From Knoellia sp. S7-12 (GTDB lineage: Bacteria > Actinomycetota > Actinomycetes > Actinomycetales > Dermatophilaceae): a stretch of 64,000 nucleotides of DNA. The notes under the pieces were generated by a model, which saw nothing but the letters and a program-made list of their open reading frames with translations, was not told the origin of the DNA and made no database searches. The DNA lies in contig NZ_CP155449.1 in NCBI RefSeq assembly GCF_040518285.1, positions 1,550,001-1,614,000 on the forward strand, given 5' to 3'. Position numbers and translations under genes: made by a program. Of the stretch, positions 1-64,000 are shown piece after piece (within the stretch, counting starts at the first letter, position 1; each line of letters starts with the position of its first letter).

Positions 1-344
1 ATGCCATGGAGCTCCTGACGGACCGCATCCCCAGCGGCTCCCTCGCCGCCGTGCACCTGTTCTTCCCCGATCCATGGCCCAAGAACAAGCACTCCAAGCG
101 GCGTTTCGTGCAGCAGCACACGCTCACGATGCTTGGCGACCGGCTCGAGCCCGCCGGTGTGCTGCGCATCGCCACGGACCACGAGGTGTATGCCGCCCAC
201 GTCCGTCAGCAGGTGAGTCACCACGATGGGTGGCAGATCGTCGAGGGGGAGCGACCGCCGTGGCGCCCACAGGACGGGTTCGAGGCCAAGGGTCTGCGGG
301 CGGGCCGCAGCATCCACGAGTTCACGCTCACGAAGGCCAGCTGA
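1..344 (+). CDS. trmB: tRNA (guanine-N7)-methyltransferase, C-terminal part
   Basis: The reading frame is open at the left edge, so only the C-terminal ~113 residues are in the window. TrmB methylates G46 in the variable loop of tRNA using S-adenosylmethionine. The motif FFPDPWPKNKHSKRR is the family signature just after the SAM-binding fold, and it is followed by LRIATDHEVYA, which matches the strand and helix carrying tRNA-contacting residues. The stop codon is followed directly by a short direct repeat of CTGACGCAAGG. The next gene is a tRNA on the opposite strand. Identification is secure; the true start lies outside the window. Confidence 0.93.
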   Translation, partial: AMELLTDRIPSGSLAAVHLFFPDPWPKNKHSKRRFVQQHTLTMLGDRLEPAGVLRIATDHEVYAAHVRQQVSHHDGWQIVEGERPPWRPQDGFEAKGLRAGRSIHEFTLTKAS

Positions 345-432
345 CGCAAGGTCAACTGACGCAAGGCCGGACTGACTGCGCGGGCTGGACACACCAGCAC
401 GCGCAGCTGTGCCGGGCAGAGTCACACGAGGG

Positions 433-506
433 TCGGGCTGACAGGATTTGAACCTGCGACATCTTCGTCCCAAACGAAGCGCGCTACCAAGCTGCGCCAC
501 AGCCCG
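433..506 (-). tRNA. tRNA-Pro (anticodon TGG)
   Basis: On the minus strand a 74-nt cloverleaf is readable. A 7-bp acceptor stem pairs CGGGCTG (506-500) with CAGCCCG (440-434), with discriminator A at 433. The anticodon stem CTTCG/CGAAG encloses loop TTTGGGA with anticodon TGG. The T-arm GGTTCAAATCC is present. CCA is not encoded. A TAnnnT element (TACAGT on the minus strand, 521-516) sits about 10 nt upstream and could be the -10. Confidence 0.96.
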
Positions 507-635
507 TTCGTCCGCACTGTATCGGACGGACCATCAACACCTGACCTGCGTCAGCCGATTTCGGATCCTGCGCAGGCGGCCATTAGGCTAACCTCGGCTC
601 CGAACCGGTCGACTCACGTCGACCGCAACGAGTGC

Positions 636-709
636 GCGGGCGTAGCTCAATGGTAGAGCCCCAGTCTTCCAAACTGACTACGCGGGTTCGATTCCCGTCG
701 CCCGCTCCA
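636..709 (+). tRNA. tRNA-Gly (anticodon TCC)
   Basis: A cloverleaf of 71 nt plus an encoded CCA (707-709). The acceptor stem pairs GCGGGCG with CGCCCGC, the D-arm is TAGCTCAATGGTAGAGC, the anticodon loop CTTCCAA carries TCC at 668-670, and the T-arm is GGGTTCGATTCCC. A TAGGCT (584-589) about 47 nt upstream could be the -10. A strong hairpin with a T-run follows at once (715-756). Confidence 0.97.
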
Positions 710-714
710 CACAC

Positions 715-756
715 AGGTATGCCGCCCACTCAGCAGAGTGGGCGGCATACCTTTTT
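715..756 (+). terminator. Intrinsic terminator after tRNA-Gly, built from inverted GTATGCCG words
   Basis: A perfect 17-bp stem (715-731 with 736-752), loop AGCA, then TTTTT. The arms begin with AGGTATGCCG and end with its complement. The element is the typical hairpin-plus-U-run and also carries an inverted pair of the octamer that is over-represented across the window. Confidence 0.9.
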
Positions 757-783
757 GCGCTGTGGACGTCGTGTTGCTGGACG

Positions 784-1731: not shown

Positions 1732-2001
1732 GGGTTCTCCTCAGGGATGGCGGCCCGTTCGGCCCGCTGCCGGGACGCTACCCCCGACGGTCGCCCCTGT
1801 GGGCGACTACGACCGAGACGATTCGGCCCACGTGGCGCGTGCCGTTAGCATGTTCGCGAGTATGACTTCTTCGGTATGCCGTGTGCTTCCGCCCCGCTGA
1901 CCGCGGGCCAGTGCTTGCCACCGGCAGTCCGAACCTGATCTCAACCCGCGAGGTGCGCCTCGCAATCATCCAGTGATCCCAACACGTGCGGAGTGCCTGA
2001 A

Positions 2002-3378: not shown

Positions 3379-3394
3379 CGCTTCCCGCTCCACC

Positions 3395-3444
3395 ACGACG
3401 TATGCCGTGTGCTCACCGCGAGGTGAGCACACGGCATACGTCGT
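3395..3444 (+). terminator. Perfect 23-bp hairpin after tig, inverted GTATGCCG pair
   Basis: Arms 3395-3417 and 3422-3444 are perfectly complementary around a GCGA tetraloop. No T-run follows, so it is either a Rho-independent terminator of the U-poor actinobacterial kind or an RNA-stabilising 3' hairpin. Both arms contain the octamer GTATGCCG/CGGCATAC. Confidence 0.75.
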
Positions 3445-3495
3445 TCTCGCAGGTCAGAGGTTGCTTCTCGGCTCGATCCGTGATGAGGGTGGGGC

Positions 3496-3963: not shown

Positions 3964-5010
3964 CGTCGTGTCACCGATGCGGAGCGAGACCTCAAAGGTC
4001 TCGCTCCGCGGTGATTCACCGGCCAGAGCACGCCGCGTGAGGTCGCCGAGGAGACGGCCCTTGGACTCACCGGGCTGATCGATCGTCGTCAGCTGACGGT
4101 CGAGCCACGAGAGGTCGACCCCGTCGAATCCGGTCACCGAGACGTCCTGCGGCACCCGCAGGCCCAGACTCTCAGCGGCGCGAATCACGCCTGCTGCCAA
4201 CAGATCCGACTGGGCGACGATGCCGGTGGGCCGGGCGGTGGGCGCAACGTCGAGCAGGAGCCGCCCTGCGTTCTCGCCCTCCGCGACATCCGGCTGGGCC
4301 GCCTCGACGAGAGGACTCGCGGGGTCGGCGACGTCGAGGAACCCGAGTGCGCGGTCGCGTGCATCCGGGTATGCCGCCCGCTCAAGTTCCGCTGCCTCGA
4401 TGCGGTGAGTGGACCGGCGCGGTCCGATCGGCATGAGGACGTGGGCGACCCGGGTGTGGCCGAGATCGACGAGGTGACGGGTTGCCGCGGCGGAGGCGCC
4501 ACGTTCGTCGACGACGACATGAACGACCTGGTCATGGACAGGTGCCCCGGCGCCGATCAGGGGGATGCGGCGAGCCAGGAGGTGGTCGACGAGGGGGCTG
4601 TCGGTGCGACCACAGAGGGGGAAGATCGCGGCGTCGATCGCGTGGGCGGCGAGGGGGTTGGGGGCGCTGTCTCCGTGGTCGGCCAGGAGCAGCATGCTCG
4701 TACCCATGGCATCCAGTTCCTGGGCGAGCCCGTCGAGCACGGCGAGGGCAAACGGGTCGCGGAACGCGTGGAGCAGTCGGTCCTCGACGATGACGGCGAC
4801 AGTGCCCGCTCGGCCCTGGCGCAGCGAGCTCGCCAACGGATCGGGACCGGCGTAGGCGAGTTCAGCCGCGGCGGCGTGCACGCGCTCGGCGGTCGCCGCA
4901 GCAACGGGACCCTTGCCGCTGAAGACGAGCGAGGCCGTGCTGATCGAGACGCCAGCCCGCTCGGCGACGTCACGCAGCGTGACCTTGCGCGTTTGACGAG
5001 AAGGGCTCAT
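3949..5010 (-). CDS. LacI-family transcriptional regulator
   Basis: 353 residues from ATG 5010. The N-terminal helix-turn-helix VTLRDVAERAGVSISTASLVFSGK is the LacI DNA-binding signature, followed by the hinge region (VAAATAERVHAAAAELAY) and a periplasmic-binding-protein-like ligand domain ending near VSVTGFDGVDLSWLDRQLTTIDQP, the usual LacI C-subdomain motif. It is divergent from an MFS transporter, the expected regulator/transporter arrangement; the ligand is probably a sugar or related solute. A perfect 16-bp palindrome just upstream (5023-5038) is the likely operator. A longer open frame to 5067 exists but would swallow the operator. Confidence 0.92.
   Translation of the reverse strand: MSPSRQTRKVTLRDVAERAGVSISTASLVFSGKGPVAAATAERVHAAAAELAYAGPDPLASSLRQGRAGTVAVIVEDRLLHAFRDPFALAVLDGLAQELDAMGTSMLLLADHGDSAPNPLAAHAIDAAIFPLCGRTDSPLVDHLLARRIPLIGAGAPVHDQVVHVVVDERGASAAATRHLVDLGHTRVAHVLMPIGPRRSTHRIEAAELERAAYPDARDRALGFLDVADPASPLVEAAQPDVAEGENAGRLLLDVAPTARPTGIVAQSDLLAAGVIRAAESLGLRVPQDVSVTGFDGVDLSWLDRQLTTIDQPGESKGRLLGDLTRRALAGESPRSETFEVSLRIGDTTSGPG
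3979..4009 (+). terminator. 13-bp hairpin between convergent genes
   Basis: GCGGAGCGAGACC (3979-3991) pairs perfectly with 3997-4009 around loop TCAAA. It lies just after the SRPBCC stop and inside the last codons of the convergent LacI-family gene, so it probably terminates the SRPBCC transcript. There is no T-run. Confidence 0.55.
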
Positions 5011-5022
5011 GGGGACGAGACT

Positions 5023-5038: not shown

Positions 5039-5061
5039 CGCATGTCCCCACCTTGCCATCT

Positions 5062-5119: not shown

Positions 5120-5147
5120 GCATAACCCACGAGAGAGACCCGAGCCC

Positions 5148-6434: not shown

Positions 6435-6559
6435 CCGGCATACGCCGCTCGCTTTTGTGCTCAGGGCGAACACGGGCCGGGACCGGGAGTGTGGGGGTGG
6501 AGCCGCGCGTTAAGGTCAGCGAAAGGCAAGACCCCACATCACGGCAGGAGCAGATCAGC

Positions 6560-7893: not shown

Positions 7894-7937
7894 CGCAGGT
7901 ATGCCGTCCGCTCACCTGAGCGGGCGGCATACCTGCG
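7894..7937 (+). terminator. Hairpin after clpP2, inverted GTATGCCG pair
   Basis: Arms starting CGCAGGTATGCCG (7894 onward) and ending CGGCATACCTGCG (to 7937) pair over about 20 bp with one G-T wobble and a 4-nt loop. It lies 19 nt after the clpP2 stop, so it most likely ends the clpP1-clpP2 transcript. Confidence 0.75.
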
Positions 7938-11166: not shown

Positions 11167-11210
11167 CGCAAACTTTGGCGTATGCCGCCCGCTCACCCGG
11201 CGCCTGCGTG

Positions 11211-11765
11211 TCACCGACGTTCTGCGCCGGGAGCGGTGACGATCCGGGGCCGGTCCTGCGCGCGCGCCAGCACGAAGGCGAGGGCGAGAGTCGCCACCGA
11301 GGCGAGCGCGGCATACGTGATCACGGGGACCCCGGAAGGTGCGTCAGTCGACTGGGCCACGAGAAGCACCCACACCGGAAGGGCCAAGCCGATCACGGTG
11401 AGTCCGCGGCGAGTCCAGCGCAGCAGGGTCGCGCGGGGGAGCGGAGCGGCCGGTGGTAGTGCGGCCGCCAGTGCGGCGGCGAGATGGATCGTCAGCAGCG
11501 CCACGGTGGTGATCCCGGTCAGCGCCCAGTCGCGCACATCGGCGGGAACCTCCGTGCTCGACAGCCAGTTCGCTCCGTGCAGGGCGAGGAGCAACGCCGT
11601 GAGGCGGGACGCCGGGTCCAACGCCACGAACGGCGTGAGGAAGATGAGGATGCCGGCTCCGACGAGTGTGCCCGCGGGGGTGGCGAACGCGGCGAGGAGG
11701 GCCAGGCCGACCGACAACGTCGCGATGAGGACTCGCAGAGCCTTGTGTGACGGGGAGAGCGTCAT
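11211..11765 (-). CDS. Hypothetical integral membrane protein of MoxR/DUF58 operon
   Basis: 184 residues with about five predicted membrane helices (about 11-30, 34-52, 85-104, 119-136, 146-163). No domain is recognised. It is the last gene of a five-gene minus-strand operon (DUF4129, small membrane protein, MoxR, DUF58, this gene), and its ATG overlaps the DUF58 stop as ATGA, which implies translational coupling. Such partners of MoxR/DUF58 systems are often variable membrane proteins. Confidence 0.7.
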   Translation of the reverse strand: MTLSPSHKALRVLIATLSVGLALLAAFATPAGTLVGAGILIFLTPFVALDPASRLTALLLALHGANWLSSTEVPADVRDWALTGITTVALLTIHLAAALAAALPPAAPLPRATLLRWTRRGLTVIGLALPVWVLLVAQSTDAPSGVPVITYAALASVATLALAFVLARAQDRPRIVTAPGAERR

Positions 11766-13267: not shown

Positions 13268-14235
13268 GAGGAAGAGATCGGTGAGGGAGTGGGGACGCTC
13301 GAGAGGATCGAGGAAACGACGCTTTCGGCGCTGACGTCGTTGATCCAGAGCTCGGGGCGCACGGTCACCCGGTGGTCGAGCGCGGAGTGCGCGACCGCCT
13401 TCACGTCCTCGGGGGTGACGTAGTCACGGCCGAGGATCACGGCATACGCCCGGCTGGTCAGCATGAGCGCGAGGGAGCCACGTGGCGAAGCGCCGAGGAC
13501 GAGGCTGGCATGCGAGCGCGTCGCCGCGGCAAGGCGTACGCAATAGCGTCCGATGCCCTCGTCCACGGTGACGGTCTCCACGGCGTGTTGCATCGCGACG
13601 AGCCCGGCGGCGTCGGTCACGGCCGGCACGGTCTGCGCCTCCTGCTGCCGCTCGACCCGGCGCCGCAGAACCTCCCACTCCTCGCCCGAGGTGGGATAAC
13701 CGAAGGAGATACGCAACAGGAACCGGTCGAGCTGGGCTTCTGGCAGCGGATAGGTGCCTTCGTACTCCACGGGGTTCGCGGTGGCGAGCACGTGGAAGGG
13801 GCGCGCCAGCGCAAACGTCTCGCCCTCCACGGTGATCTGCCCCTCCTGCATGGCCTCGAGGAGCGCCGACTGAGTCTTGGGAGGCGTGCGGTTGATCTCG
13901 TCGGCAAGGAGCAATTCGGTGAAGAGCGGCCCGCGCCGGAACGCGAACTCCTGGGTGCGCTGGTCATAGATGAAGGCACCGGTGAGATCACTCGGTAGCA
14001 GGTCGGGGGTGAACTGAGCGCGCGCGAAGTCGAGCCCGAGGGCCTGCGCGAACGACCGAGCGGCGAGGGTCTTGCCGAGACCGGGGAAGTCCTCCAAGAG
14101 GATGTGTCCGCCGGCCAGGACACCTGCGAGGACGAGTTCGAGGCTGGCTCGATTGCCCACGACGGCGCGCTCGACCGCGGCAAGAATGTGCGCCGCGCGA
14201 TCGGTGACCTCGGGCAGCGTGGGGGTGTCAGTCAC
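13264..14235 (-). CDS. MoxR-family AAA+ ATPase
   Basis: 323 residues. Walker A region LLEDFPGLGKT at about residues 45-55, Walker B in LLLADEINRTPPKTQSALLEAMQE, sensor 1 LATANPVEYEGTYPLPEAQLDRF and the AAA-lid region with RDYVTPEDVKAVA, all diagnostic for MoxR. MoxR ATPases act as chaperones that activate or remodel partner complexes, here most likely the DUF58 protein whose gene follows with GTGA overlap. GTG 14235 directly follows the upstream gene's stop, with GGAGGA just before it inside that gene. Confidence 0.93.
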   Translation of the reverse strand: MTDTPTLPEVTDRAAHILAAVERAVVGNRASLELVLAGVLAGGHILLEDFPGLGKTLAARSFAQALGLDFARAQFTPDLLPSDLTGAFIYDQRTQEFAFRRGPLFTELLLADEINRTPPKTQSALLEAMQEGQITVEGETFALARPFHVLATANPVEYEGTYPLPEAQLDRFLLRISFGYPTSGEEWEVLRRRVERQQEAQTVPAVTDAAGLVAMQHAVETVTVDEGIGRYCVRLAAATRSHASLVLGASPRGSLALMLTSRAYAVILGRDYVTPEDVKAVAHSALDHRVTVRPELWINDVSAESVVSSILSSVPTPSPISSS

Positions 14236-19633: not shown

Positions 19634-19746
19634 GGGCGTGATTCTCCCAGAACCTCACCAGTGCTCCCAACCGGGTTCCTTTGCGGCGTATGCCGCCCGC
19701 TCGCCGCCGCGACCGTCTCACCTTCCGATCGCGGACGTCCGGGGGC

Positions 19747-29818: not shown

Positions 29819-29958
29819 ACCGGCCCCTCCTGCTCCTCCACAACGCCTCGGTCTCATCGAAGGATAGGCGGCGGAAGCGATTCGTGGTGCGCCGCCCTCC
29901 ACCCACTCGGCGGTCTCGGGATACGTTGGGTCTGGTATCAGCACTCGGGGAGGAAAGC

Positions 29959-48360: not shown

Positions 48361-48366
48361 ACGACG

Positions 48367-51300
48367 ATGACCTACCCCCAGGTCTCCACCGCCGGCGAGC
48401 AGCCGGAGCCGGGCACCCAGAGCGTGCCCTCGAGCCCCCGCTTCCCGCAGATCGAGGAGGCCGTCCTCGCCTACTGGGACGCCGACGGCACCTTCCAGGC
48501 CTCGATCGAGCAGCGCGACGCCGGCGAGAACGGTGACAACGAGTTCGTCTTCTATGACGGACCGCCCTTCGCCAACGGTCTGCCGCACTACGGCCACCTG
48601 CTCACCGGCTACGTCAAGGACCTCGTCCCGCGCTACCAGACGATGCGTGGCCGCCGGGTCGAGCGCCGCTTCGGCTGGGACACGCACGGTCTGCCCGCCG
48701 AGCTCGAGGCGATGAGCCAGCTCGGCATCAAGACCAAGGACGAGATCCTCGAGCTCGGCATCGAGAAGTTCAACGACGCCTGCCGGTCCTCGGTCCTCCG
48801 GTACACCGACGAGTGGCGCGACTACGTCACCCGCCAGGCGCGCTGGGTCGACTTCGACAACGACTACAAGACGCTCAACGCGCCCTACATGGAGTCGGTC
48901 ATGTGGGCGTTCAAGTCGCTCTATGACAAGGGCCTGGTCTATGAGGGCTTCCGCGTCCTGCCCTATTGCTGGAACGACCAGACGCCGCTGTCCAACCACG
49001 AGCTGCGCATGGACGACGAGGTCTACCAGCAGCGCCAGGACCCCGCCGTCACCGTCGGATTGCGGCTCGAGACAGGCGAACTCGCGCTGATCTGGACGAC
49101 GACGCCGTGGACTCTGCCGAGCAACCTCGCGATCATGGTCGGCACCGACATCGACTACGTCGTCGTGACGTCTGACTTCACGGGCACGACGGAGCGCTAC
49201 GTCATCGCGGAAGCCCGCTTGGCGGCATACGCCAAGGATCTGGGTCTCGAAGCTGGGACGCTCGACGACGCGATCGTGGAGCGGCTCAAGGGTGCCGACC
49301 TGCTCGGGCGCAGCTACACACCGCCGTTCTCCTACTACGCCGGTCACGAGAACGCGTTCCGCGTCGTCGAGGCCGACTTCGTCACGACGACCGACGGCAC
49401 CGGCCTCGTGCACAGCGCCGGCGCGTTCGGTGAGGAGGACAAGGTCATCACCGACCGCGAGGGCATCGAGCCGGTCATGCCGGTCGGTGCTGACGGTGCG
49501 TTCACCTTCCCCGTGGCCGAGTACGAAGGCCTGCTCGTGTTCGACGCCAATGCGCCGATCATCGACCACCTCAAGGCGGCGACGCGTGGTTCGGGCGAGT
49601 TGGGGTCGGTGACCGCCGGCACGGTGTTGCTGCGTCGCGAGACCTATGACCACTCCTACCCGCACTGCTGGCGCTGTCGGCAGCCGCTCATCTACAAGGG
49701 TGTGTCGTCCTGGTTCGTCGAGGTGACGAAGTTCAAGGAGCGCATGGTCGAGCTCAACCAGCAGATCGAGTGGGTGCCCGAGCACGTCAAGGACGGACAG
49801 TTCGGCCGCTGGCTCGAGAACGCCCGCGACTGGTCGATCACGCGAAATCGCTTCTGGGGCAGCCCTGTTCCCGTGTGGCAGTCCGACGACCCGGCCCACC
49901 CGCGCATCGACGTCTACGGCTCGTTCGAGGAGATCGAGCGCGACTTCGGGCGTCTGCCGCTCAATGCGCAGGGCGAGCCTGACCTGCACCGTCCGTTTGT
50001 TGACTCACTCACTCGACCCAACCCCGACGACCCCACCGGGAAGTCGACGATGCGCCGCGTCGAGGACGTGTTGGATGTCTGGTTCGACTCGGGCTCGATG
50101 AGCTATGCCCAGGTGCACTACCCGTTCGACAATGCCGAGTGGTTCGAGCACCACTTCCCGGCCGACTTCATCGTCGAATACATCGGGCAGACGCGCGGCT
50201 GGTTCTACATGCTGCACATCCTGTCGACGGCGCTCTTCGACCGGCCGGCGTTCAGCTCGGTGATCTCGCACGGCATCGTCCTGGGCTCCGACGGCCAGAA
50301 GATGTCGAAGTCGCTGAAGAACTACCCGGACGTGCGCGAGGTCTTCGACCGTGACGGCGCCGATGCGATGCGCTGGTTCCTCATGGCCTCACCGATCCTG
50401 CGTGGTGGCAATCTCATCGTCACCGAGGAGGCCATCCGCGAGGGCGTGCGCCAGGTCCAGATCCCGCTGTGGAACAGCTGGTACTTCTTCTCCCTCTACG
50501 CCAACGCCTACGGCGCCGATGGCACGGGGTATGCCGCGTCGTCGTCGACCGCGTCCGCCGCACCGTTGGACCGTTATCTGTTGGCGAAGCTGCGCCAGCT
50601 CGTCGAGACGACGACGGCTCAGCTCGATGGCCTCGATGTCGCCGGTGCGTGTGACTCGGTGCGTGGGTTCGTCGACGTGCTCACCAACTGGTACATCCGC
50701 CGGTCGCGAGAACGCTTCTGGGACACCGCTTCCAGCGATGCGGCCGATGGGTCTGACGCCGACACACGCGCCGCGTTCGACACGCTCCACACGACGCTCG
50801 AAGTCCTGACGCGGGTCACGGCCCCCCTGCTGCCGCTCGTGTCGGAAGAGATCTGGCGTGGTCTCACGGGGGAGCGCTCGGTGCACCTCACCGACTGGCC
50901 GTCCCCGGAGGAGCTGCCGGCCGACGACGAGCTCGTCGCGCGGATGGACCAGGCGAGAGTCATCTGCTCGGTGGCCTCGTCGCTGCGCAAGTCCGAGAGG
51001 CTGCGGGTGCGACTGCCGCTGCGCGACCTCACCGTCGTCGTGCCCGATGCTGCAGCGCTGCGAGAATTCGCCGCGATCATCGCCGACGAGGTCAACGTCC
51101 GTCAGGTGACACTGCTGGACCTCGACTCCGCGGGCGAGAGCGACTTCGGGGTGACCCAGAAGCTCACCGTCAACGCTCGGGTCGCGGGTCCGCGGCTCGG
51201 GCGTGAGGTGCAGACCGCGATCAAGGGATCGAAGTCCGGTGACTGGTCGGTGGCCGAGGACGGCACCGTCATCAGTGGCGGCCTTGAGCTCGTCGAGGGC

Positions 51301-51690: not shown

Positions 51691-51706
51691 CCGGCATACC
51701 CCGGGA

Positions 51707-52795: not shown

Positions 52796-53269
52796 GTGCC
52801 CGAGCCCATCCGACGTGTCCCCGGTGACCTGCTCGTGCACCTGCGTCGAGCTCGCGACCATGTCGACCGTCACTTCGCCGACGAGCTCGACCTCGACGAG
52901 CTGGCGGGGATCGCGCGGCTCAGCAAGTTCCACTTCCTCCGGTCGTTCGCCAGCGTCTATGGGCTCACCCCACTTGCCTATCTCGGTGAGCGTCGTGTCG
53001 AGCGGGCGCAGGACCTGCTCCGAACTACGAACCTCACGGTGACCGAGGTGTGCCACGCCGTCGGCTATTCGAGTCTCGGCTCGTTCAGCAGTCGGTTCCG
53101 CGAGATCGTCGGCGAGACTCCCAGCGCCTTTCAGGCTCGGTATGCCGTGGGCGGCGCCCCTCGCATCCCGGGCTGCTGGGTCTTCATGACCGGCGTCGTC
53201 GAGAAGCGCGCTGAACCTGGAACTGGAGCGGACGGCATACCGAGCAATTCGGGAGAAGCGCGGCACTGA
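52796..53269 (+). CDS. AraC-family regulator (DNA-binding domain only)
   Basis: 157 residues from GTG 52796. Two helix-turn-helix motifs (LDLDELAGIARLSKFHFLRSF and VTEVCHAVGYSSLGSFSSRFREIVGETPSAF) make up the AraC DNA-binding domain; there is no separate ligand domain. TAGTGT lies 6 nt before the start, so the mRNA may be leaderless. It is followed 23 bp later by a VOC gene, a recurring actinobacterial pair in which the VOC protein may be the effector-linked enzyme. Confidence 0.88.
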   Translation: MPEPIRRVPGDLLVHLRRARDHVDRHFADELDLDELAGIARLSKFHFLRSFASVYGLTPLAYLGERRVERAQDLLRTTNLTVTEVCHAVGYSSLGSFSSRFREIVGETPSAFQARYAVGGAPRIPGCWVFMTGVVEKRAEPGTGADGIPSNSGEARH

Positions 53270-53292
53270 CTCTGCGGCATACCTTCGATCTC

Positions 53293-55382: not shown

Positions 55383-56060
55383 TCAGTCGAGGGGTTCGCC
55401 GGCCAGGGCCTTGGCGGCCAGGTGCTCCTCGCTCGCGACCTCCCACACCTCCGCGGCGGCGTGAACACCCAGAGCGACGATCGCGAGCCCTAGGACGAGG
55501 TCCGGCCACCCAGAGCCCGTCCACAGCGTCACCAGTCCCATCGCGATGATGGCGAGATTGACCAGCACGTCGTTGCGAGCAGACAGGTATGCCGCCCGCG
55601 ACAGGCTCCCTCCCACCGTCCGGACTCGCGCAAGAAGCCACGCGCACAAGCCGTTGACGAGGGCTGCCGAACCGGCGGTCAGCACCAGCCAGCCGACATC
55701 CGGCGGGGGCGGATCGCCCCACTTGGCCACCGCCTGCCACACCGCGGCTGCGGCAGGGACGAGCAGGATGCCCGCCATGACCTGGCCGGCAACGGCGCGA
55801 TGTCGGGCGCCCCACCCGAGGGCCAGAGCGATGAGCAGGCTGATGGCTGTGTCCTCGAGGCAGTCAACACTGTCCGCGAAGAGCGCGACCGAGCCGATCG
55901 CCAATGCCATCGAGGCCTCGACCCAGAACCACGCGAAGTTGATCCCGGCGACGACGAGCACGACCCGACGCAGTCTGGAAGGCGAGGGCAGGGGCGCACG
56001 TGAGCGTGATCGTGAGGGCGCTGGGAGGGGCACTGGTCCATCCAACCAGCGGACTGGCAC
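55383..56060 (-). CDS. CDF-like cation efflux transporter
   Basis: 225 residues from GTG 56060. Six membrane segments are visible. The second contains SVALFADSVDCLEDT, the Asp-rich metal site of cation diffusion facilitators, and a later helix SARNDVLVNLAI holds the second pair. The C-terminal cytosolic domain is missing or very short, so it is a minimal CDF-type protein. Metal specificity is unknown. Confidence 0.75.
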   Translation of the reverse strand: MPVRWLDGPVPLPAPSRSRSRAPLPSPSRLRRVVLVVAGINFAWFWVEASMALAIGSVALFADSVDCLEDTAISLLIALALGWGARHRAVAGQVMAGILLVPAAAAVWQAVAKWGDPPPPDVGWLVLTAGSAALVNGLCAWLLARVRTVGGSLSRAAYLSARNDVLVNLAIIAMGLVTLWTGSGWPDLVLGLAIVALGVHAAAEVWEVASEEHLAAKALAGEPLD

Positions 56061-56091: not shown

Positions 56092-58239
56092 CTAGGGGAG
56101 AGTGATCGCGATGCCAGTGGTTGACTGGCCGTCGGTCAGCGTGATCGGCGTCGCCAGGGCGAGAGGGACGCTGCCGCTCCAGCAGTATTCGGTGCTTGTC
56201 ATCGAGCGGGCGGCGCACGCCAGGACCGTTCCCGGATGGACTCGTGCCGACCAGATGCCCGTGGAGAAGTTGGGAAGCGCGATCCCGAACCGAGTGCCGT
56301 TGGCTCGGTAGAGGTTCACACGTGTGGCAGTGCTGAGGGGTGCAGAGGTTCCACTGGCGACCTTCACCCTTAGCTCGGCGAGGGCTTCTGCCTCAAGGTT
56401 GATGTTGGTCGCGGAGCCTGCCGCCACGGAGATCGTTTTGGCGCCCGCTGCTGCCAGGGTGGCCGGCTGAATCGAGTTGGCTCGCTGCACATCCGGGTAC
56501 CACTCTCCCGCGAGCCCGAAAGGCGTGGCTGTCGTCGAGGTCGGGTTGCCGAGCTGCACGTAGTACTCACCTGCCGCGACTCGCGGGACGTTCCACTGCC
56601 CACTGACGACGGAAGCGTCGTACTGGCGCTTGTCGCTGTTGCGGATCAGCGTGACGATCGCGCTCGTCAGAGGCCGACCGGTGTAGTCCGTCGCGGCGCC
56701 CTGAACGGTCCCGGCCGGTTCCAGAACGATGTCTGTCCCCGCAACGCGCTCGCCAAGGGCCAGAGCGAAGGTCGTGGGGTGGACCCACGACGGGTGACAC
56801 CCGTCGGCGTATGCCGGGTCCGGCTCCCCGAACGCCCCGGCTCGAGCACAGGGCGTCACAGTTTCGCGGCCCAGCGGCAACGTGAGGTTGTACGAGCCGT
56901 CAGCCCCGCTGCGTGCGTTCCCGCCGTCGTCGGGTGCGGGCATGACCCAGGCACCGGAGATCCCGCGACCGACGTTGTCGATGACGCGCCCCGTCGCCGC
57001 CCTTTCGCCAGTGACCCAGCCCACCAGGTCGACGACCACGTCCACCGATGCCGCAGCGCCACCGTTGGTCACGGTGATGTCGTTGTCTTGGCGTGCGACA
57101 ACCAGGTTGGTCGTGGCCCGGCCCGCGACGTAGTTCACTGCCGAGGTGGGGTTCTGCGCGATGTTGTTCGCGCTCACGGTCAAGTGACCGGCGCCGCTGG
57201 CGCCGGTGGCCGTGACGGCCAGCACCGCCGCGCTGGCTCCCTCGGGTCGGCCAGAACGATCGAGGGTCAGGGTCTCTCCGCGCCGGAGCGGCCCTGCGAT
57301 GCGCGTGTCCCAGATGCGGGTGGGTGACACGGGCACGACACCGGCAAGGGTGCGGGCGCCATCCCCGGAGCGAGTCCATCCGAAGGCGTCGACGATGAGG
57401 TGAATGGGTCGGGAGGAAGCGTTGTATGCCGTCACCGCACCTGTGGCGCTCAACCTGGCGAGGGTGAGGGCGGCCCGTGTGTCGGCGGGGCCGAAGTTCA
57501 GGTTCGAGGTCAGTGGTCGAGACGTACCGGCGGCGTGGACCGTGAGATGTCCCGCGGCCATCGTCTGGGTCGCGGTGAAGTTGAGCCACGCTGCACCGAC
57601 CCCAGTGGAGGGGACGCCCCCACGCCCGGCGATCTGGACGTTGATGGCGCCGTGACTCGGAATGGTGACCCGCGCGCGGGTGTCCAGGAGGCGGCTCGGG
57701 AAGATCGTCTTCGTGGTCCCGGCGACGGTTGCGGGACCGGGCATCACGAAGCTCTGCACGTCAAGGATCACGTGGGTCGTCCCCGGGGAGGCATTCTTCA
57801 CGGAGATGCAGCCCACGACGCCGAGTTCGACCACGGCCAGGTTGGACGTGGTCGACCCCGCACTGAAGTTGAGGTTCGAGACGGAGGGCTGGTCGTGGCC
57901 GGCACTAAACGCGGTGAGGTGACCCGCCCTCGTGGGGGACACCGCAGTCATGTTGACGACAAGAGCTGCTGCCTCAGTCGGCACCCTCCGGCCGGTCACG
58001 CAGGCCATCCGCACTTCACCGGCGGCCAGTGGGCGCTCGGCTCGCGAGTCATACATCCGGAACGGCGACACGGTGCCGACGATGCCGGTGGCCGCCGGTT
58101 CGATCCGGGGCGTACTGGTCGACGTCGACGCGGCCGGGATCGGGGTCGTCGGAGCACCCGAGGCGCTCGGGGTGCCGGCCAAGAAGCCGAGCGAGACGAT
58201 CGCCATCGCGGTCGTCAATGCCCATCGACGAGTTCTCAT
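56092..58239 (-). CDS. Large secreted protein with three repeats and Cna-like domains
   Basis: 715 residues with a signal peptide (to about 28). Three divergent repeats of ~105-115 residues start with xRMYDSR, SRLLDTR and TRIWDTR (near 60, 180 and 308) and each ends with a short VxDVQSF/VDAFGW/VDLVGW segment. Two carboxypeptidase-regulatory-like (Cna B type) domains follow: GRVIDNVGRGISGAWV and GTVQGAATDYTGRPLTSAIV. No enzymatic domain or wall-anchor is seen. It is probably an extracellular or surface adhesive/binding protein. Confidence 0.8.
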   Translation of the reverse strand: MRTRRWALTTAMAIVSLGFLAGTPSASGAPTTPIPAASTSTSTPRIEPAATGIVGTVSPFRMYDSRAERPLAAGEVRMACVTGRRVPTEAAALVVNMTAVSPTRAGHLTAFSAGHDQPSVSNLNFSAGSTTSNLAVVELGVVGCISVKNASPGTTHVILDVQSFVMPGPATVAGTTKTIFPSRLLDTRARVTIPSHGAINVQIAGRGGVPSTGVGAAWLNFTATQTMAAGHLTVHAAGTSRPLTSNLNFGPADTRAALTLARLSATGAVTAYNASSRPIHLIVDAFGWTRSGDGARTLAGVVPVSPTRIWDTRIAGPLRRGETLTLDRSGRPEGASAAVLAVTATGASGAGHLTVSANNIAQNPTSAVNYVAGRATTNLVVARQDNDITVTNGGAAASVDVVVDLVGWVTGERAATGRVIDNVGRGISGAWVMPAPDDGGNARSGADGSYNLTLPLGRETVTPCARAGAFGEPDPAYADGCHPSWVHPTTFALALGERVAGTDIVLEPAGTVQGAATDYTGRPLTSAIVTLIRNSDKRQYDASVVSGQWNVPRVAAGEYYVQLGNPTSTTATPFGLAGEWYPDVQRANSIQPATLAAAGAKTISVAAGSATNINLEAEALAELRVKVASGTSAPLSTATRVNLYRANGTRFGIALPNFSTGIWSARVHPGTVLACAARSMTSTEYCWSGSVPLALATPITLTDGQSTTGIAITLP

Positions 58240-58322
58240 GTCTTCCCCTCACACCGCAGGGCCCACTCGAACCTGCTGGGGCAGAGCGTAGGGCCATCCG
58301 TCGGGCGGCATACCCTCGTTGC

Positions 58323-58981: not shown

Positions 58982-58991
58982 GCTGACCCGC

Positions 58992-59414: not shown

Positions 59415-59539
59415 CGGCTCCGGACTCGCCGCGACCATTCACGAGAATGGCTTGTTTTCATCGGGCAGAACCGCCGGTAGCGCTCTAGGTTGAGGACTCG
59501 CGGCCCACCAGGCCGCCTTCCCTTGATGAAGGAGCGGGT

Positions 59540-61633
59540 ATGAGGATCACTCGAGTTGGGCCGGGGGTGCTGGCCACGGTTGCGCTGGCAGCCGCCGGCC
59601 TCGCAGGCACGGGAGCCGCCACCGCGGCACCCCAGCCCAAGGCGCAGGACGACAAGGTGCAGATCGTCACCGTCCATGCGGCCACGCAGAAGGAGCGCTC
59701 GGCGGTCAACGCCCTGGGCCTCGACACCACGGAGCACGCCGACACCACCGGCGTCGACGTCGTGCTGCACGAAGCGGCTGACGTGGCCAAGCTGCGCGCG
59801 TCGGGCAAGAAGTGGACGGTGAAGGTTGCCGACCTCGCTGCCGTGGAGCGGGCCAACAAGGCCAAGGACAAGGCGTATGCCGCGAGCGTGGCCGAGTCCG
59901 AGCTCCCCAGCGGTCGCACTGGCTATCGCCAGCTCGCCGACTACAACTCCGAGATGGCGGCGCTGGCCGCGAAGTACCCGACGAAGGTCAAGCCGCTGAC
60001 CCTGGCGAACCCGTCCGTGCTCGGCAAGCCCATCCAGGGCATCGAGATCACCGACAACGCAGCCAACACCAAGGACGGCAAGCCGGTCTTCCTCCTCATG
60101 GGCGCCCACCACGCCCGCGAGTGGCCGTCGTCCGAGCACTCGCTGGAGTTCGCCTACGACCTCCTCGAGAGCGGCGACGCACGCAACGCCGGCCTGCTCA
60201 AGAGCATGCGCACGATCGTCGTCCCCGTGGTCAACGTCGACGGGTTCGAGATCTCGCGAAAGGCAGCGCCGCTGGGGAACTTCTCGCGGTTCGACTACGA
60301 GATGAAGCGCAAGAACTGCGCCATCAGTGCCACCACCCCCGTGCAGTTCACCACCGGCCCGTGCGACAACAACCTGGCCGGACGGCTGCGGGGCACCGAC
60401 CCCAACCGCAACTATCCCGGATTCTGGGGTGGTCCCGGCGCCGACTTCGAGTGGGACAGCGACACCTACCGCGGTGACGGCCCGGGCAGCGAGCCCGAGG
60501 TCGACGCCGTGCGCAAGCTCGTCAGCTCACGTCAGGTGACCAACCTCATCACCAACCACACGTACAGCAACCTCATCCTGCGTCCGCCGTCGCTGGCCTC
60601 GACGGGCTTCAGCCCCGACGAGCTCAAGTACCGCGCGCTCGGAGCCTCGATGGCCGAGCACAACGACTACGCCAACATCCCGTCGTTCGGTCTCTACGAC
60701 ACGTCGGGCTCGACCGAGGACTGGAGCTACTGGAACACCGGTGGTCTCGGCTTCACCTTCGAGATCGGCACGGAGGGCTTCCACCCGCCGTACCAGACCG
60801 GAGTGGTCGCGGAATACGCCGGTCTCGCCCCCGCGGCCGGAGCAGGCAAGGGCGGCAACCGTGCGGCTTACTACCGCATGGCAGCTGCCACGGTGGACAA
60901 GACGCTGCACTCGACGATCACGGGCAAGGCGCCGGCCAACACCGACCTCACGATCCGCAAGACCTACCAGGGCATGACCTCACCGGTCATCGCACCGGAC
61001 GGCTCCGTGGGAGCACCGATCCCGTTCACCGACGTCCTCACCTCGTCGCTCGCGGGCAAGGGTGGCTCGTTCTCGTGGGCGGTCAACCCCTCGACCCGAC
61101 CGATCGTCGCCGGTCGCTACGGTCGTGACGCGGTGGCGCCGCAGCAGCCCAGCTCACCGATCGCCAACCCGGCTGGTCTCCCGCCGGTCGGCGGCTCGGA
61201 GTTCTCGAACGTCACCATCCAGGGTCTTCCGACCTACGACAACGGCAAGGTGCTCTTCACCTTCGGTTGGCAGGGTCCCAACCCCGATCCGAACGTTGAC
61301 TGGGACTTCTTCATCTACGACTCGGCTGGCAACCAGGTCGCGTCGGCAGCAACCCTGGCCAACCCGGAGATCGCGGCCGCTCTTGACCCGGTGCCCGGTG
61401 GCTACCGTGTCGAGGCTGTGAACTACGGCGGCGGTTCGGCTGCTGACTGGACCGGCACGATGTCCTTCCAGGCGCCGGACCCGGCCATCGTCACGGGCGT
61501 CAAGGAGACGTGGAACCTCACCTGCGAGAACAAGCAGGGCAAGGTCCTCGGCACCCGCAGCATCGTCGTCGACCGCGGCGAGTCCGTTGACGTCGGCAAC
61601 CCCTGCAACCGGGGCAAGAACCCCAAGCAGTGA
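59540..61633 (+). CDS. Secreted zinc carboxypeptidase, M14 family
   Basis: 697 residues. Signal peptide ending near ATAA (about 30) and a propeptide-like segment, then an M14 carboxypeptidase domain: HHAREWPS (zinc ligands His and Glu), NLITNHTYSNL (third ligand His) and FTFEIGTEG with the catalytic Glu. The C-terminal ~200 residues form a separate beta-rich domain that includes NVTIQGLPTYDNGKV. GGAG is 5 nt before ATG 59540. It releases C-terminal amino acids from extracellular peptides, alongside the M43 protease at 784. Confidence 0.92.
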   Translation: MRITRVGPGVLATVALAAAGLAGTGAATAAPQPKAQDDKVQIVTVHAATQKERSAVNALGLDTTEHADTTGVDVVLHEAADVAKLRASGKKWTVKVADLAAVERANKAKDKAYAASVAESELPSGRTGYRQLADYNSEMAALAAKYPTKVKPLTLANPSVLGKPIQGIEITDNAANTKDGKPVFLLMGAHHAREWPSSEHSLEFAYDLLESGDARNAGLLKSMRTIVVPVVNVDGFEISRKAAPLGNFSRFDYEMKRKNCAISATTPVQFTTGPCDNNLAGRLRGTDPNRNYPGFWGGPGADFEWDSDTYRGDGPGSEPEVDAVRKLVSSRQVTNLITNHTYSNLILRPPSLASTGFSPDELKYRALGASMAEHNDYANIPSFGLYDTSGSTEDWSYWNTGGLGFTFEIGTEGFHPPYQTGVVAEYAGLAPAAGAGKGGNRAAYYRMAAATVDKTLHSTITGKAPANTDLTIRKTYQGMTSPVIAPDGSVGAPIPFTDVLTSSLAGKGGSFSWAVNPSTRPIVAGRYGRDAVAPQQPSSPIANPAGLPPVGGSEFSNVTIQGLPTYDNGKVLFTFGWQGPNPDPNVDWDFFIYDSAGNQVASAATLANPEIAAALDPVPGGYRVEAVNYGGGSAADWTGTMSFQAPDPAIVTGVKETWNLTCENKQGKVLGTRSIVVDRGESVDVGNPCNRGKNPKQ

Positions 61634-61670
61634 CGCACGAGTCGCCTTGCGAAGGGTGACAACAATGCCA

Positions 61671-61708
61671 AGGTATGCCGTCCGCGCACGTGCGCGGACG
61701 GCATACCT
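61671..61708. terminator. Perfect 38-nt palindrome after the carboxypeptidase gene
   Basis: Positions 61671-61708 equal their own reverse complement, with arms of AGGTATGCCG and its complement at the two ends. It lies 37 nt after the stop and before the leaderless mreB. It is the third clear inverted pair of the octamer at a gene end without a T-run. Confidence 0.75.
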
Positions 61709-61829
61709 GCGTCTGTGGCCCTTGCGTCCGCAGTTCTGGTGACCCCACCGTCACATTGCCGCACGCAAGGTCAGGGGAGACGCGTGTTGGGCTGGGTCGG
61801 GCACCGGCAGCCCGCGTAGCATCGCGAAC

Positions 61830-62861
61830 GTGGCTGGACTGGACCGATGGATGCGCGGGCGTGACCTCGCGATCGACCTCGGGACCGCCAACACGGTGAT
61901 CTATGAGCGGGGTCGCGGGGTCGTCCTCGACGAGCCGTCGGTCGTGGCCGTGCGCACCGGGACCTCTCAGCTCCTCGCCGCCGGGCACCGCGCCAAGGAG
62001 ATGCTTGGCCGCACGCCCGACTCGGTCAGTGCCATCCGCCCGCTACGTGACGGAGTCATCTCCGACGCCGACGTCACCGAGCGGATGCTGCGCTGGTTCG
62101 TCGACCAGGTGTCGCCGTCCAAGATCTTCCGCCCGCGCATGGTCGTGTGCGTGCCGAGCGACATCACGAGCGTCGAACGTCGTGCCCTCGAGGACTCCAC
62201 CCTGCGTGCTGGTGCGCGGCGAGTCCATGTCATCGAGGAGCCGATGGCGGCTGCGATCGGAGCCGGCCTCCCCATCGAGGAGACCAACGCCTCGATGGTC
62301 GTCGACCTCGGTGGTGGCACGACCAACGTCGCCGTCATCAGCCTCGGCGGCATCGTCACGTCACGTTCGATCCGCATCGGTGGTGATGAGGTCGACGAGG
62401 CGATCATCGCGCACGTGAAGTCCGAGTACTCCCTGCTCATGGGCGAACGCAGCGCCGAGCAGATCAAGGTCGCGGTCGGCTCGGCGTTCCCGATGCGCGA
62501 GGAGCTCAGCGAGCGGGTGCGCGGTCGTGACCTCGTGACCGGTCTGCCCAAGACGGTGTCGATCTCGTCGGTCGAGGTCCGCCGTGCCATCGAGACGCCC
62601 GTGCTGCAGATGGTCGAGTTGGCGCGGGCCGTCCTCGACGTGTGCCCACCCGAGCTCGCGGGCGACATCCTCGACCGCGGAATCACTCTCACCGGCGGTG
62701 GTGCGCTGTTGCGCGGGCTCGCCGAGCGGATGCACCACGAGCTGGGTGTCCCGGTCGTCGTCGCCGACGACCCGCTGCGCGCCGTCGCCCGGGGTGCGGG
62801 CAAGTGCATCGAGGAGTTCGACACCCTGCACCGCGTCCTCGTCGACAACCGTCGGCTGTGA
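61830..62861 (+). CDS. mreB: Rod shape-determining protein MreB
   Basis: 343 residues from GTG 61830. Actin fold: phosphate-1 loop LAIDLGTANT, connect-1 and phosphate-2 VVDLGGGTTNVAV, adenosine motif GITLTGGGALLRG. MreB directs cell-wall synthesis. TAGCAT (61817-61822) is 7 nt before the GTG, so leaderless. It overlaps mreC by GTGA. The rod-shape operon here is complete up to mreD. Confidence 0.94.
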   Translation: MAGLDRWMRGRDLAIDLGTANTVIYERGRGVVLDEPSVVAVRTGTSQLLAAGHRAKEMLGRTPDSVSAIRPLRDGVISDADVTERMLRWFVDQVSPSKIFRPRMVVCVPSDITSVERRALEDSTLRAGARRVHVIEEPMAAAIGAGLPIEETNASMVVDLGGGTTNVAVISLGGIVTSRSIRIGGDEVDEAIIAHVKSEYSLLMGERSAEQIKVAVGSAFPMREELSERVRGRDLVTGLPKTVSISSVEVRRAIETPVLQMVELARAVLDVCPPELAGDILDRGITLTGGGALLRGLAERMHHELGVPVVVADDPLRAVARGAGKCIEEFDTLHRVLVDNRRL

Positions 62862-63697
62862 AGGGCGACGCGTCCGACCGTCGACGCCGTCGGTTCGTCG
62901 CGCTCGCAGTGCTCGTGACCCTGGCGCTCGTGCTCGTCGACCTCGTCGGTGGTCCGGGGCCGGGACTGCTGCGGCGCGGCGCTGCCACCGTCCTCGGTCC
63001 GCTCGAGCGCGTGCTCGCTCCCGGAGGTCGCCCCGGTGAGGAGGACCTGCGGCGCGAGAACGACCGTTTGGCCAGCGAGCTGCGTGAGGCCGAACTGGCA
63101 GGCGGCGATGCAGCTGCCCTGAAGTCTCTGCTGGCGGCACCGTCCACCGCTGGGGCCCGCGTCGTCCCGGCGCGGGTCGTCGGGGTTGGTGCACCCGGCC
63201 CTCAGGGCATCGTCCGCATCACCATCGATGTCGGTAGCCGCGACGGCGTCACCGCTGACCGCACCGTCGTCTCCGGCAACGGGCTGGTGGGCCGCGTGGC
63301 GGCGGTGGCGCCCTGGACGAGCGACATCTTCGTCGTCGGAGGGCCGGAGGTCTCTGTTGGTGTGCGCGTCGGGGCGTCAGGCGCGCTCGCCACCGTCGGA
63401 GGGACCGCCGCCTCAGCGGCCGAGCGGGACACCGGGGAGCTCGGGATCAGCCTCGTCCAGACTGGCGCGCTGCGCGTTGGCGACGAGGTGCGCACTCTTG
63501 GCAGCGTCGATGGCCGCCCGTTCGTCCCAGGTGTCCTCGTCGGCACCGTCAGTGCGGTCGAACCACGACGCGGCCGGCTCGCGGCGTCGGGCACCCTGCG
63601 ACCTGCCGTCGACGTCGGTGCGCTCTCGGTCGTCGGCGTGCTTCTCACCGGACCGCGTGCCACCCCACGGGCGACGGTCACCGGGGGAGCGCCGTGA
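62858..63697 (+). CDS. mreC: Rod shape-determining protein MreC
   Basis: 279 residues from GTG 62858. One N-terminal membrane helix (about 13-33), a coiled-coil segment (EEDLRRENDRLASELREAELAG), and a periplasmic-like beta domain with RVVPARVVGVGAPGP, SRDGVTADRTVVS and GNGLVGRVAAV, the MreC pattern. Links MreB to peptidoglycan synthases. Overlaps both neighbours by GTGA. Confidence 0.92.
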   Translation: MKGDASDRRRRRFVALAVLVTLALVLVDLVGGPGPGLLRRGAATVLGPLERVLAPGGRPGEEDLRRENDRLASELREAELAGGDAAALKSLLAAPSTAGARVVPARVVGVGAPGPQGIVRITIDVGSRDGVTADRTVVSGNGLVGRVAAVAPWTSDIFVVGGPEVSVGVRVGASGALATVGGTAASAAERDTGELGISLVQTGALRVGDEVRTLGSVDGRPFVPGVLVGTVSAVEPRRGRLAASGTLRPAVDVGALSVVGVLLTGPRATPRATVTGGAP

Positions 63698-64000
63698 CCG
63701 TGTCGGGGGTGGCGCTGCGTGGCGCACTCCTGCTCGTTGGCGCCGTCCTCGCCGTGACCCTCGGCGCTCGGCACCTCGCGCCTCTGCCCGACCTCGTCCT
63801 CGTCGTCGTCGCGTCGGCAGCATTGCGCTCGGGGCCCCGGGTCGGCCTGATCACGGGCCTGGTCGGCGGTTGGCTTCTTGATCTCCTGCCGCCGGGCTCG
63901 GCCGTGCTCGGCACCCAAGCCCTCCTGTATGCCGTGTGTGGCCTTCTCGTCGGCCTCGCCCGGCGTCCCGGTCACGTGTCGTTGGTGTGGGTCGTCGCCG
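63694..64000 (+). CDS. mreD: Rod shape-determining protein MreD, partial
   Basis: Starts at GTG 63694 (overlapping the mreC stop) and stays open to the window edge; about 102 residues are visible. It is highly hydrophobic: LRGALLLVGAVLAVTLGARHLAPLP, then VLVVVASAALRSGPRVGLITGLVGGWLLDLLPPG, typical of MreD membrane helices. An octamer word is at 63927. Confidence 0.85.
   Translation, partial: MTVSGVALRGALLLVGAVLAVTLGARHLAPLPDLVLVVVASAALRSGPRVGLITGLVGGWLLDLLPPGSAVLGTQALLYAVCGLLVGLARRPGHVSLVWVVA

What the first reader, a model, noticed from the sequence alone, without database searches (positions are those of the whole stretch)
188..63934. GTATGCCG: a DNA-uptake-sequence-like word, hugely over-represented
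Reading by eye I find about 48 copies of GTATGCCG or CGGCATAC. Plus strand: near 188, 717, 1876, 3400, 4371, 7899, 11180, 14311, 16884, 19686, 23239, 28598, 31047, 34629, 40887, 42049, 42996, 47527, 50527, 53140, 55587, 56807, 57424, 59875, 61672, 63927. Minus: near 744, 3433, 6436, 7926, 11310, 13440, 15599, 16487, 18804, 20467, 23022, 23083, 29813, 32028, 42625, 47775, 49223, 51692, 53234, 53276, 58306, 61700. At about 69% GC one expects about 2-3 on both strands. Strand use is balanced (about 26 versus 22), which argues against Chi- or KOPS-like polarity. In genes the word forces rare codons (TAT-GCC for Tyr-Ala, GCA-TAC for Ala-Tyr) in a genome that normally uses GC-ending codons, so selection seems to act on the DNA. 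Spacing of about 1.3 kb, presence in genes, and inverted pairs at gene ends (next finding) mirror the uptake sequences of Neisseria and Haemophilus. If real, this would be a DUS/USS-like system, or another genome-wide recognition word, in an actinobacterium.
Basis: partly seen in the sequence, partly recalled or inferred. Interest (0 to 1): 0.93.

Follow-up and report, generated by a model that had tools for sequence, protein, structure and literature searches.

The report
DNA self-recognition word in actinobacteria
The genome of a soil bacterium (Knoellia) carries thousands of copies of one eight-letter DNA word, with related words in related genera, which looks like the tags that some other bacteria use to recognise and take up DNA of their own kind, but in a branch of bacteria for which I found no report of such tags.

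Summary
Confirmed. GTATGCCG occurs exactly 48 times in the window (26+/22-) against about 1 expected, and 2,805 times in the 4.16-Mb genome (reversed word: 79). The genus is Knoellia (Dermatophilaceae). Selection acts on the DNA: the word is 10-fold above codon shuffles inside genes, denser between genes, and kept between species (38 of 42 aligned sites versus 6 of 30 one-mismatch words). It shows no strand polarity, pairs into hairpins behind genes, and is depleted in a mobile insert. All 9 Knoellia and 12 of 27 other family genera sampled carry over 900 copies; others use variants (GTATGNCG, GGATGCCG, GTATGCGG), and a second family has its own ten-letter word, GGATGCCTCG. Copy number, dialects, hairpin pairs and scarcity in mobile DNA match the uptake sequences of Neisseriaceae and Pasteurellaceae. 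ComEA, ComEC and Flp/Tad genes are present, but no type IVa pilin in this genome. Best reading: a DNA-uptake-sequence system with a non-ComP receptor, not reported for actinobacteria in the papers I could search. Against it: no excess of one-mismatch forms, competence genes do not track the word, this strain's Flp pilin gene is interrupted. Receptor and uptake are untested.

The parts
188..195 (+). word GTATGCCG, genic
717..724 (+). word, left arm of hairpin (17 pairs), between tRNA-Gly and a convergent gene
743..750 (-). word, right arm of hairpin
1874..1881 (+). word, intergenic
3400..3407 (+). word, left arm of hairpin (23 pairs)
3432..3439 (-). word, right arm of hairpin
4369..4376 (+). 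word, genic
6436..6443 (-). word one base behind a stop codon
7899..7906 (+). word, left arm of hairpin (21 pairs, two G-U)
7925..7932 (-). word, right arm of hairpin
11180..11187 (+). word, intergenic, 13 bp behind a gene
11309..11316 (-). word, genic
13440..13447 (-). word, genic, identical in all 7 other Knoellia aligned there
14311..14318 (+). word, genic, identical in all 7 other Knoellia aligned there
15598..15605 (-). word, intergenic
16487..16494 (-). word, genic
16884..16891 (+). word, genic
18802..18809 (-). word in a class I (I/L/M/V type) tRNA synthetase gene, identical in all 8 other Knoellia
19688..19695 (+). word, intergenic
20466..20473 (-). word, genic
23021..23028 (-). word, genic
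23084..23091 (-). word, genic
23238..23245 (+). word, genic
28598..28605 (+). word, genic
29813..29820 (-). word overlapping a gene start
31046..31053 (+). word, genic
32027..32034 (-). word, genic
34630..34637 (+). word, genic
40884..40891 (+). word, genic; not alignable in the relatives
42051..42058 (+). word, genic; kept in 1 of 6 relatives aligned
42625..42632 (-). word, genic
42997..43004 (+). word, genic
47529..47536 (+). word, genic
47772..47779 (-). word, genic, identical in all 7 other Knoellia aligned there
49223..49230 (-). word, genic
50529..50536 (+). word, genic
51692..51699 (-). word one base behind a stop codon
53140..53147 (+). word, genic
53233..53240 (-). word, genic
53275..53282 (-). 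word, intergenic, 5 bp behind a gene; not conserved
55587..55594 (+). word, genic
56809..56816 (+). word, genic; not alignable in the relatives
57424..57431 (+). word, genic; not alignable in the relatives
58306..58313 (-). word, intergenic, 9 bp before a gene
59875..59882 (+). word, genic; not kept in the relatives aligned
61673..61680 (+). word, left arm of hairpin (17 pairs)
61699..61706 (-). word, right arm of hairpin
63927..63934 (+). word, genic

Best explanation
GTATGCCG is the uptake (self-recognition) sequence of a natural-transformation system in Knoellia and relatives. A surface DNA receptor on the Flp/Tad competence pilus, or in the pilus-ComEA-ComEC path, prefers double-stranded DNA that carries the word in either orientation. 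DNA of the same lineage is then taken up and recombined more often than foreign DNA, so words spread and are kept wherever genes tolerate them, above all between genes and in hairpins behind genes. Change of the receptor's preference gives dialects in sister genera. Shown: copy number, lack of polarity, DNA-level selection, conservation, hairpin pairs, dialects, scarcity in mobile DNA, presence of comEA/comEC/Tad genes.
For: 48 copies versus about 1; 2,805 genome-wide, balanced; 21 of 36 family genomes above 900 copies, none of 22 in other families; order draw: 14 of 24 family genomes, none of 273 others. Codon shuffles 17.4 versus 179. Site conservation in the nearest relative 38/42 versus 6/30 for one-mismatch words, p 9e-10. 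Balanced strands in 9 stretches. A nearly excluded on both flanks. Dialects counted in whole genomes: GGATGCCG 3,816 and 3,949; GTATGDCG 3,747 and 4,011; GTATGCGG 1,204; GGATGCCTCG 389-1,549 copies in 6 of 6 genomes of a genus in another family. Mobile inserts: 25 words in 161 kb and 5 in 73 kb versus 71 per 100 kb in own core DNA; phage TJE1 2 in 49 kb, its reversed word also 2. ComEA-ComEC operon and two Tad clusters; in Micrococcus luteus, an actinobacterium, genes of two tad clusters are required for transformation (PMC4322843, passages).
Against: No transformation experiment. The com and Tad genes are present also in family members without any clear word, so gene presence does not track the word. 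One-mismatch words are not in excess (222 versus 210), unlike H. influenzae and N. gonorrhoeae (PMC1939737, passages). Of 17 genes around comEC of G006 none was both common in word-bearers and absent from the rest of 71 loci. In this very strain the Flp pilin gene is interrupted. A codon-like control set of 8-mers is itself fairly conserved (55% in G006).
Confidence: 0.7

Rival explanations
1. HIP1-like word: a DNA methylase or repair process that happens to favour GTATGCCG creates and keeps the sites, without any uptake role; dialects follow changes of methylase.
For: HIP1 of cyanobacteria is also massively iterated and is replaced in related genomes by other words, each with its methylase (PMC4390886, abstract and passages). 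One-mismatch words are not in excess here.
Against: HIP words are palindromic; GTATGCCG, its variants and GGATGCCTCG are not. The passages I read do not speak of hairpin pairs behind genes. The inserts, which live in the same cell, are poor in the word; a resident repair process should act on them too, but their age is unknown.
Confidence: 0.12
2. Chi-like word: it modulates the main recombination nuclease (AddAB/RecBCD/AdnAB type) during double-strand-break repair.
For: Eight bases, GC-rich, high copy number, conserved; Chi words differ between bacterial groups (recalled).
Against: No strand polarity in 9 stretches, whereas Chi is polar (recalled); one copy per 1.35 kb of core DNA, several-fold denser than E. 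coli Chi (recalled); variants within one family; hairpin pairs.
Confidence: 0.08
3. A genome-wide site for a chromosome-structure, segregation or conjugation protein (KOPS, matS, SMC or TraB type).
For: Present in each core stretch sampled along the chromosome.
Against: No polarity and no regional confinement in the samples; thousands of copies; sharp word with variants in sister genera.
Confidence: 0.06
4. Composition, codon use or terminator sequence alone.
For: Part of the intergenic copies are in hairpins.
Against: Codon shuffles 17.4 versus 179; 179 of 243 core copies are inside genes; relatives of like GC have 0-1.7 per 100 kb.
Confidence: 0.01

Closest known systems
DNA uptake sequence (DUS) of Neisseriaceae, receptor ComP (PMC3630211, passages; PMC3868556, search listing only)
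   Same: Thousands of copies, in genes and in the permissive regions between them, inverted pairs able to form hairpins at terminators, family-limited dialects around a shared core, some family members without an obvious word.
   Different: Actinobacteria, no outer membrane; no type IVa pilin motif (N_methyl) in this genome or in 34 of 36 family genomes, hence no ComP there; 8-bp core GTATGCCG; uptake not tested.
Uptake signal sequence (USS) of Pasteurellaceae (PMC2346458, abstract; PMC1626085, search listing only)
   Same: Abundant short word spread genome-wide in and between genes.
   Different: Unrelated word; none of the AT-rich flanking blocks that I recall for USS; one-mismatch words not in excess; no bias to gene ends inside genes, which the abstract reports for Pasteurellaceae.
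HIP1 of cyanobacteria (PMC4390886, abstract and passages)
   Same: Massively iterated 8-mer with alternative words in related genomes.
   Different: HIP1 is palindromic and tied to methylases; this word is not palindromic.
Micrococcus luteus Flp/Tad-dependent transformation (PMC4322843, passages)
   Same: ComEA, ComEC and two Tad clusters are present here too.
   Different: The term 'uptake sequence' does not occur in the two M. luteus papers searched for it.

Membership tests
DNA uptake sequence (works like DUS/USS) | short word in hundreds to thousands of copies, far above expectation | tested here: met
DNA uptake sequence (works like DUS/USS) | both strands, no replichore polarity | tested here: met
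   counts in 9 stretches 26/22, 32/36, 34/37, 9/6, 6/6, 5/6, 7/7, 8/8, 7/7; not all 2,805 places seen
DNA uptake sequence (works like DUS/USS) | selection on DNA, not on codons | tested here: met
   179 versus 17.4 (max 28)
DNA uptake sequence (works like DUS/USS) | inverted pairs as hairpins behind genes | tested here: met
   4 in the window; in the own DNA 15 close pairs (<60 bp), about 10 expected from the mean gap, and 10 of the 15 convergent
DNA uptake sequence (works like DUS/USS) | dialects in related genera | tested here: met
DNA uptake sequence (works like DUS/USS) | scarce in mobile DNA | tested here: met
   only two inserts of one element family and one phage were looked at
DNA uptake sequence (works like DUS/USS) | excess of one-mismatch forms (H. 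influenzae, N. gonorrhoeae; PMC1939737) | tested here: not met
   222 versus 210; 65 per 100 kb versus 63, 80 and 75 in three word-free relatives of like GC
DNA uptake sequence (works like DUS/USS) | host is naturally competent; word raises uptake | not testable with these tools
   needs experiment; comEA, comEC, Tad genes present, Flp pilin gene interrupted in this strain
Neisserial DUS/ComP system | ComP-type type IVa minor pilin receptor | tested here: not met
   no N_methyl match in own genome or in 34 of 36 family genomes; the model is 27 positions long, so misses are possible
Chi | polar orientation relative to replication | tested here: not met
   samples
HIP1 | palindromic word | tested here: not met
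   sequence itself
HIP1 | cognate methylase | not tested
   no methylome or methylase survey made

The most novel reading that the evidence does not exclude
An old, order-wide system of uptake-sequence dialects in high-GC Gram-positive bacteria, built on Flp/Tad competence pili instead of type IVa pili, most of its words sharing the core ATGCC (GTATGCCG, GGATGCCG, GGATGCCTCG in a second family), which partitions gene exchange among actinobacterial genera; mobile elements in turn attack it by inserting in the Flp pilin gene.
Probability: 0.45. Interest if true: 0.93.

Novelty: new variant of a known kind. Interest (0 to 1): 0.87.

Why it matters
Self-specific DNA uptake by a genomic word is known to me only from two Gram-negative families. 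A further case in Gram-positives with another pilus type would show that uptake words evolve repeatedly, would give a new receptor class to find, and would make it testable whether biased uptake alone produces such words. It would also offer a practical route: adding the word to DNA may make Terrabacter, Phycicoccus, Ornithinimicrobium and other environmental actinobacteria transformable, and word-poor tracts mark mobile DNA.

Tried and rejected
Composition and codon use: rejected. Polarity (Chi, KOPS): not seen. Dispersed repeat or mobile-element remnant: no conserved flank beyond weak preferences such as A-exclusion at -1 and +9. Type IVa pilus or ComP: not found. A word-specific gene beside comEC: of 17 genes of one locus (G006) compared with 71 loci, some occur in a few word-bearers only, none in most of them alone. 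Presence of comEC, Flp pilin or TadA as predictor of the word: fails, 57, 57 and 58 of 58 genomes have them. ComEC tree (37 rows): a weakly supported group (80/92) of 13 rows around Knoellia all carry some dialect, other word-bearers are scattered, and losses or independent gains cannot be told apart with its 10 open forks. Candidate word GTACGCCG in G030: 77 in genes versus 19 (max 33) in shuffles, but no denser between genes; left as a weak candidate. GGATGCCG in G009: 1,336 copies, about twice the density in other family genomes, weak; this word exceeds its reversed control about twofold in most genomes. De novo words in single 20-kb stretches of three other families (G040, G041, G043): no word of comparable count; the strongest 10-mer, CCCGAGGCGG in G041 (9 versus 0.35), was not followed. 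A 20-kb stretch of G297 did not show GGATGCCTCG among its top words although its genome holds 387; nor did the G183 stretch, whose top word is parS-like. A literal search for the octamer in papers found 3,142 papers; the 20 listed are unrelated by title. Paper searches for uptake words in actinobacteria listed no report of one among the rows shown (7, 12, 12, 10, 12, 12, 10; several lists were cut); no bioRxiv preprints and few subscription papers are held.


Full report
OBSERVATION. The window holds exactly 48 GTATGCCG, 26 on + and 22 on -. Dinucleotide shuffles give 0.94 (max 4), second-order Markov 1.35. The six top 8-mers listed are this word and shifted forms of it. The genome (G000, one contig, 4,163,720 bases; window = 1,550,001-1,614,000) holds 1,406 + 1,399 copies; the word read backwards has 33 + 46.

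WHERE IT IS. Of 58 genomes searched, all 9 Knoellia hold 1,971-3,277 copies; of 27 other genera of the family (one genome each) 12 hold more than 900 and 15 hold 11-293; 22 genomes of 19 other families of the order hold at most 167 (that genome's reversed control: 184), some of them two- to fourfold above their own small control. A wider draw of 297 genomes gave 14 of 24 family genomes above 900 and none of 273 others (maximum 177, control 135). Named word-bearers, from 14-22 kb around comEC: Knoellia subterranea, K. remsis, K. koreensis, Phycicoccus elongatus Lp2, Pedococcus cremeus, Humibacillus xanthopallidus, Intrasporangium oryzae, Terrabacter sp. Root85, Terracoccus sp., Ornithinimicrobium cavernae, Flexivirga endophytica, Nostocoides jenkinsii; with none in 13-22 kb: Phycicoccus jejuensis, Janibacter melonis, Kribbia dieselivorans, Intrasporangium flavum.

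SELECTION ON DNA. I called genes in 504 kb of own DNA with a simple codon-usage caller. Leaving out a 161-kb insert, 342.5 kb hold 243 words: 179 in genes (0.58 per kb), 59 between (1.73 per kb), 5 across an edge; relative to the gene 93 face forward and 86 backward, and all six frame and orientation classes occur, though the two that read Tyr-Ala and Ala-Tyr prevail (79 and 62 of 179); there is no trend along genes. Synonymous-codon permutation within genes gives 17.4 (max 28) for 179. The flanks are weak: A is nearly excluded just before (7 of 243; 6 of 329 in other Knoellia) and just after (4 of 243; 2 of 329) against about 15% background. One-mismatch words are not in excess: 222 versus 210, and 65 per 100 kb versus 63, 80 and 75 in three word-free relatives of similar GC. 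So recognition is sharp; this departs from the graded excess described for H. influenzae and N. gonorrhoeae (PMC1939737, passages read), though in Kingella oralis allowing one mismatch adds only 21% (PMC3630211, passages read).

CONSERVATION. Window sites were aligned to stretches of eight other Knoellia. Against the nearest, G006 (82% identity), 38 of 42 aligned sites are identical, versus 31% of all 8-mers, 55% of 82 codon-like control 8-mers, 6 of 30 one-mismatch words (p 9e-10) and 15 of 40 reversed or reversed-one-mismatch words; between genes 13 of 14 versus 29% of 8-mers. In the others 28/39, 27/41, 22/32, 13/21, 20/27, 13/21 and 9/14 are kept; against one-mismatch words p is below 0.001 in six of the eight relatives, 0.02 in G001 and 0.2 in G003. 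Three of the 48 sites are not alignable in any relative.

ARRANGEMENT. Orientation is balanced in nine own stretches. Spacing is near random (CV 0.96). Close pairs (<60 bp) number 15, against about 10 from the mean gap (my arithmetic), and 10 of the 15 are convergent. The four in the window lie directly behind genes and pair over 17, 23, 21 (two G-U) and 17 positions, beyond the word itself, with 4-base loops; only the first has a T-run. Neisserial DUS form such inverted pairs (PMC3630211).

DIALECTS. Blind word discovery in 14-60 kb per genome, then whole-genome counts, found variants: GGATGCCG 3,816 (G024) and 3,949 (G033), reversed control 392 and 289, weaker 1,336 in G009 (control 310); in other genomes this word runs about twice its control. 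GTATG[AGT]CG stands beside GTATGCCG in G011 (3,747, control 884), G034 (4,011, control 617), G012 (2,147, control 765), G019 (1,641, control 638), and less in G025 and G013. GTATGCGG has 1,204 in G027 (control 107), 433 and 459 in G019 and G025. GAATGCCG stands beside GTATGCCG in G020 (14 kb only); G023 uses a longer CGTATGCCGCTG (17 of 20 copies). Codon shuffles do not explain the variants: GGATGCCG in G033 83 versus 13 (max 19), GTATGCGG in G027 13 versus 2 (max 5). In all, 25 of 36 family genomes show some dialect (G009 counted, though weak); 11 show none that is clear. In another family (f19, unnamed) the 10-mer GGATGCCTCG has 389-1,549 copies in 6 of 6 genomes of one genus (reversed control 1-4), 121-387 in 4 of 12 genomes of a second, 22-65 in the rest of that family, and at most 42 in every genome outside it; in G055 genes 32 are seen where codon shuffles give 1.3 (max 6). 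It shares the core ATGCC; whether this is descent or chance I cannot say.

MOBILE DNA. In G000 the Flp pilin gene (DUF4244) is interrupted by about 161 kb (not checked against reads) that holds 25 words where 114 would be expected at core density. A serine recombinase lies at one end and a separate Tad cluster at the other. A second Knoellia (G001) has a related insert (63-75% identity over the longer blocks) in the same part of the gene, with recombinase relatives and 5 words in 73 kb. The phage TJE1 of Nostocoides (Tetrasphaera) jenkinsii has 2 GTATGCCG in 49 kb and 2 reversed words; a 22-kb stretch of that species has 12 and 3.

MACHINERY. ComEA (SLBB + helix-hairpin-helix) and ComEC are adjacent and overlap. 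There are two Tad clusters, one with Flp pilin, TadE and a TadE/G-like protein (seen intact in G006), one with TadE/F-like proteins at 1.401-1.405 Mb of G000 (apart from its ATPase named by reading, Pfam not run). In Micrococcus luteus, an actinobacterium, genes of two such clusters are required for transformation, and comEA and comEC homologues are present (PMC4322843 and PMC6370729, passages). No type IVa pilin motif was found in G000; G013 and G032 of the family have it. The competence genes are nearly universal in the genomes searched and do not single out word-bearers.

VERDICT. It works like DUS/USS by six tested features, fails one (graded mismatch excess), and the defining functional test is open. 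It is not a ComP system. I rate uptake at 0.7, a HIP-like methylation process at 0.12, Chi at 0.08. The facts mended on checking (insert count 25, hairpin lengths, G023 17 of 20) do not change these odds.

LIMITS. Gene calls are simple; orientation was judged from samples, not from all 2,805 places; the dialect survey used one genome for each genus outside Knoellia; the mobile-DNA test rests on two inserts and one phage; novelty rests on seven searches of an open-access library, of which I saw the listed rows.

Noticed in passing
own genome G000:C1 680,895-842,452 (loci L119-L128); G001:C78 4,023-77,064 (L284-L287): A serine-recombinase element family sits inside the Flp pilin gene of two Knoellia species (161 kb and 73 kb); the G000 insert carries its own Tad pilus cluster and aromatic-degradation genes. 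It recalls prophages that interrupt competence genes such as comK (recalled).
   Followed up: partly
G055, G265 and other genomes of family f19 (L288-L293, L304): A second, different over-represented word, GGATGCCTCG, in another family of the order, with the same DNA-level signature.
   Followed up: partly
G030 (L055, L154, L176, L298-L301): GTACGCCG fourfold above codon shuffles in a family member without GTATGCCG: possible further dialect.
   Followed up: partly
Kribbella loci L251, L253, L261: GTACGTCG 20-26 copies in 22 kb where about 3 are expected by a second-order model.
   Followed up: no
G041 (L308): CCCGAGGCGG 9 copies in 20 kb where 0.35 are expected by a second-order model.
   Followed up: no
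G053:C1 28,082-31,265: A regular array with a 61-base period that contains GTATGCGG, CRISPR-like in spacing.
   Followed up: no
window 20958-22298: EccB gene of a type VII (ESX) secretion locus.
   Followed up: no
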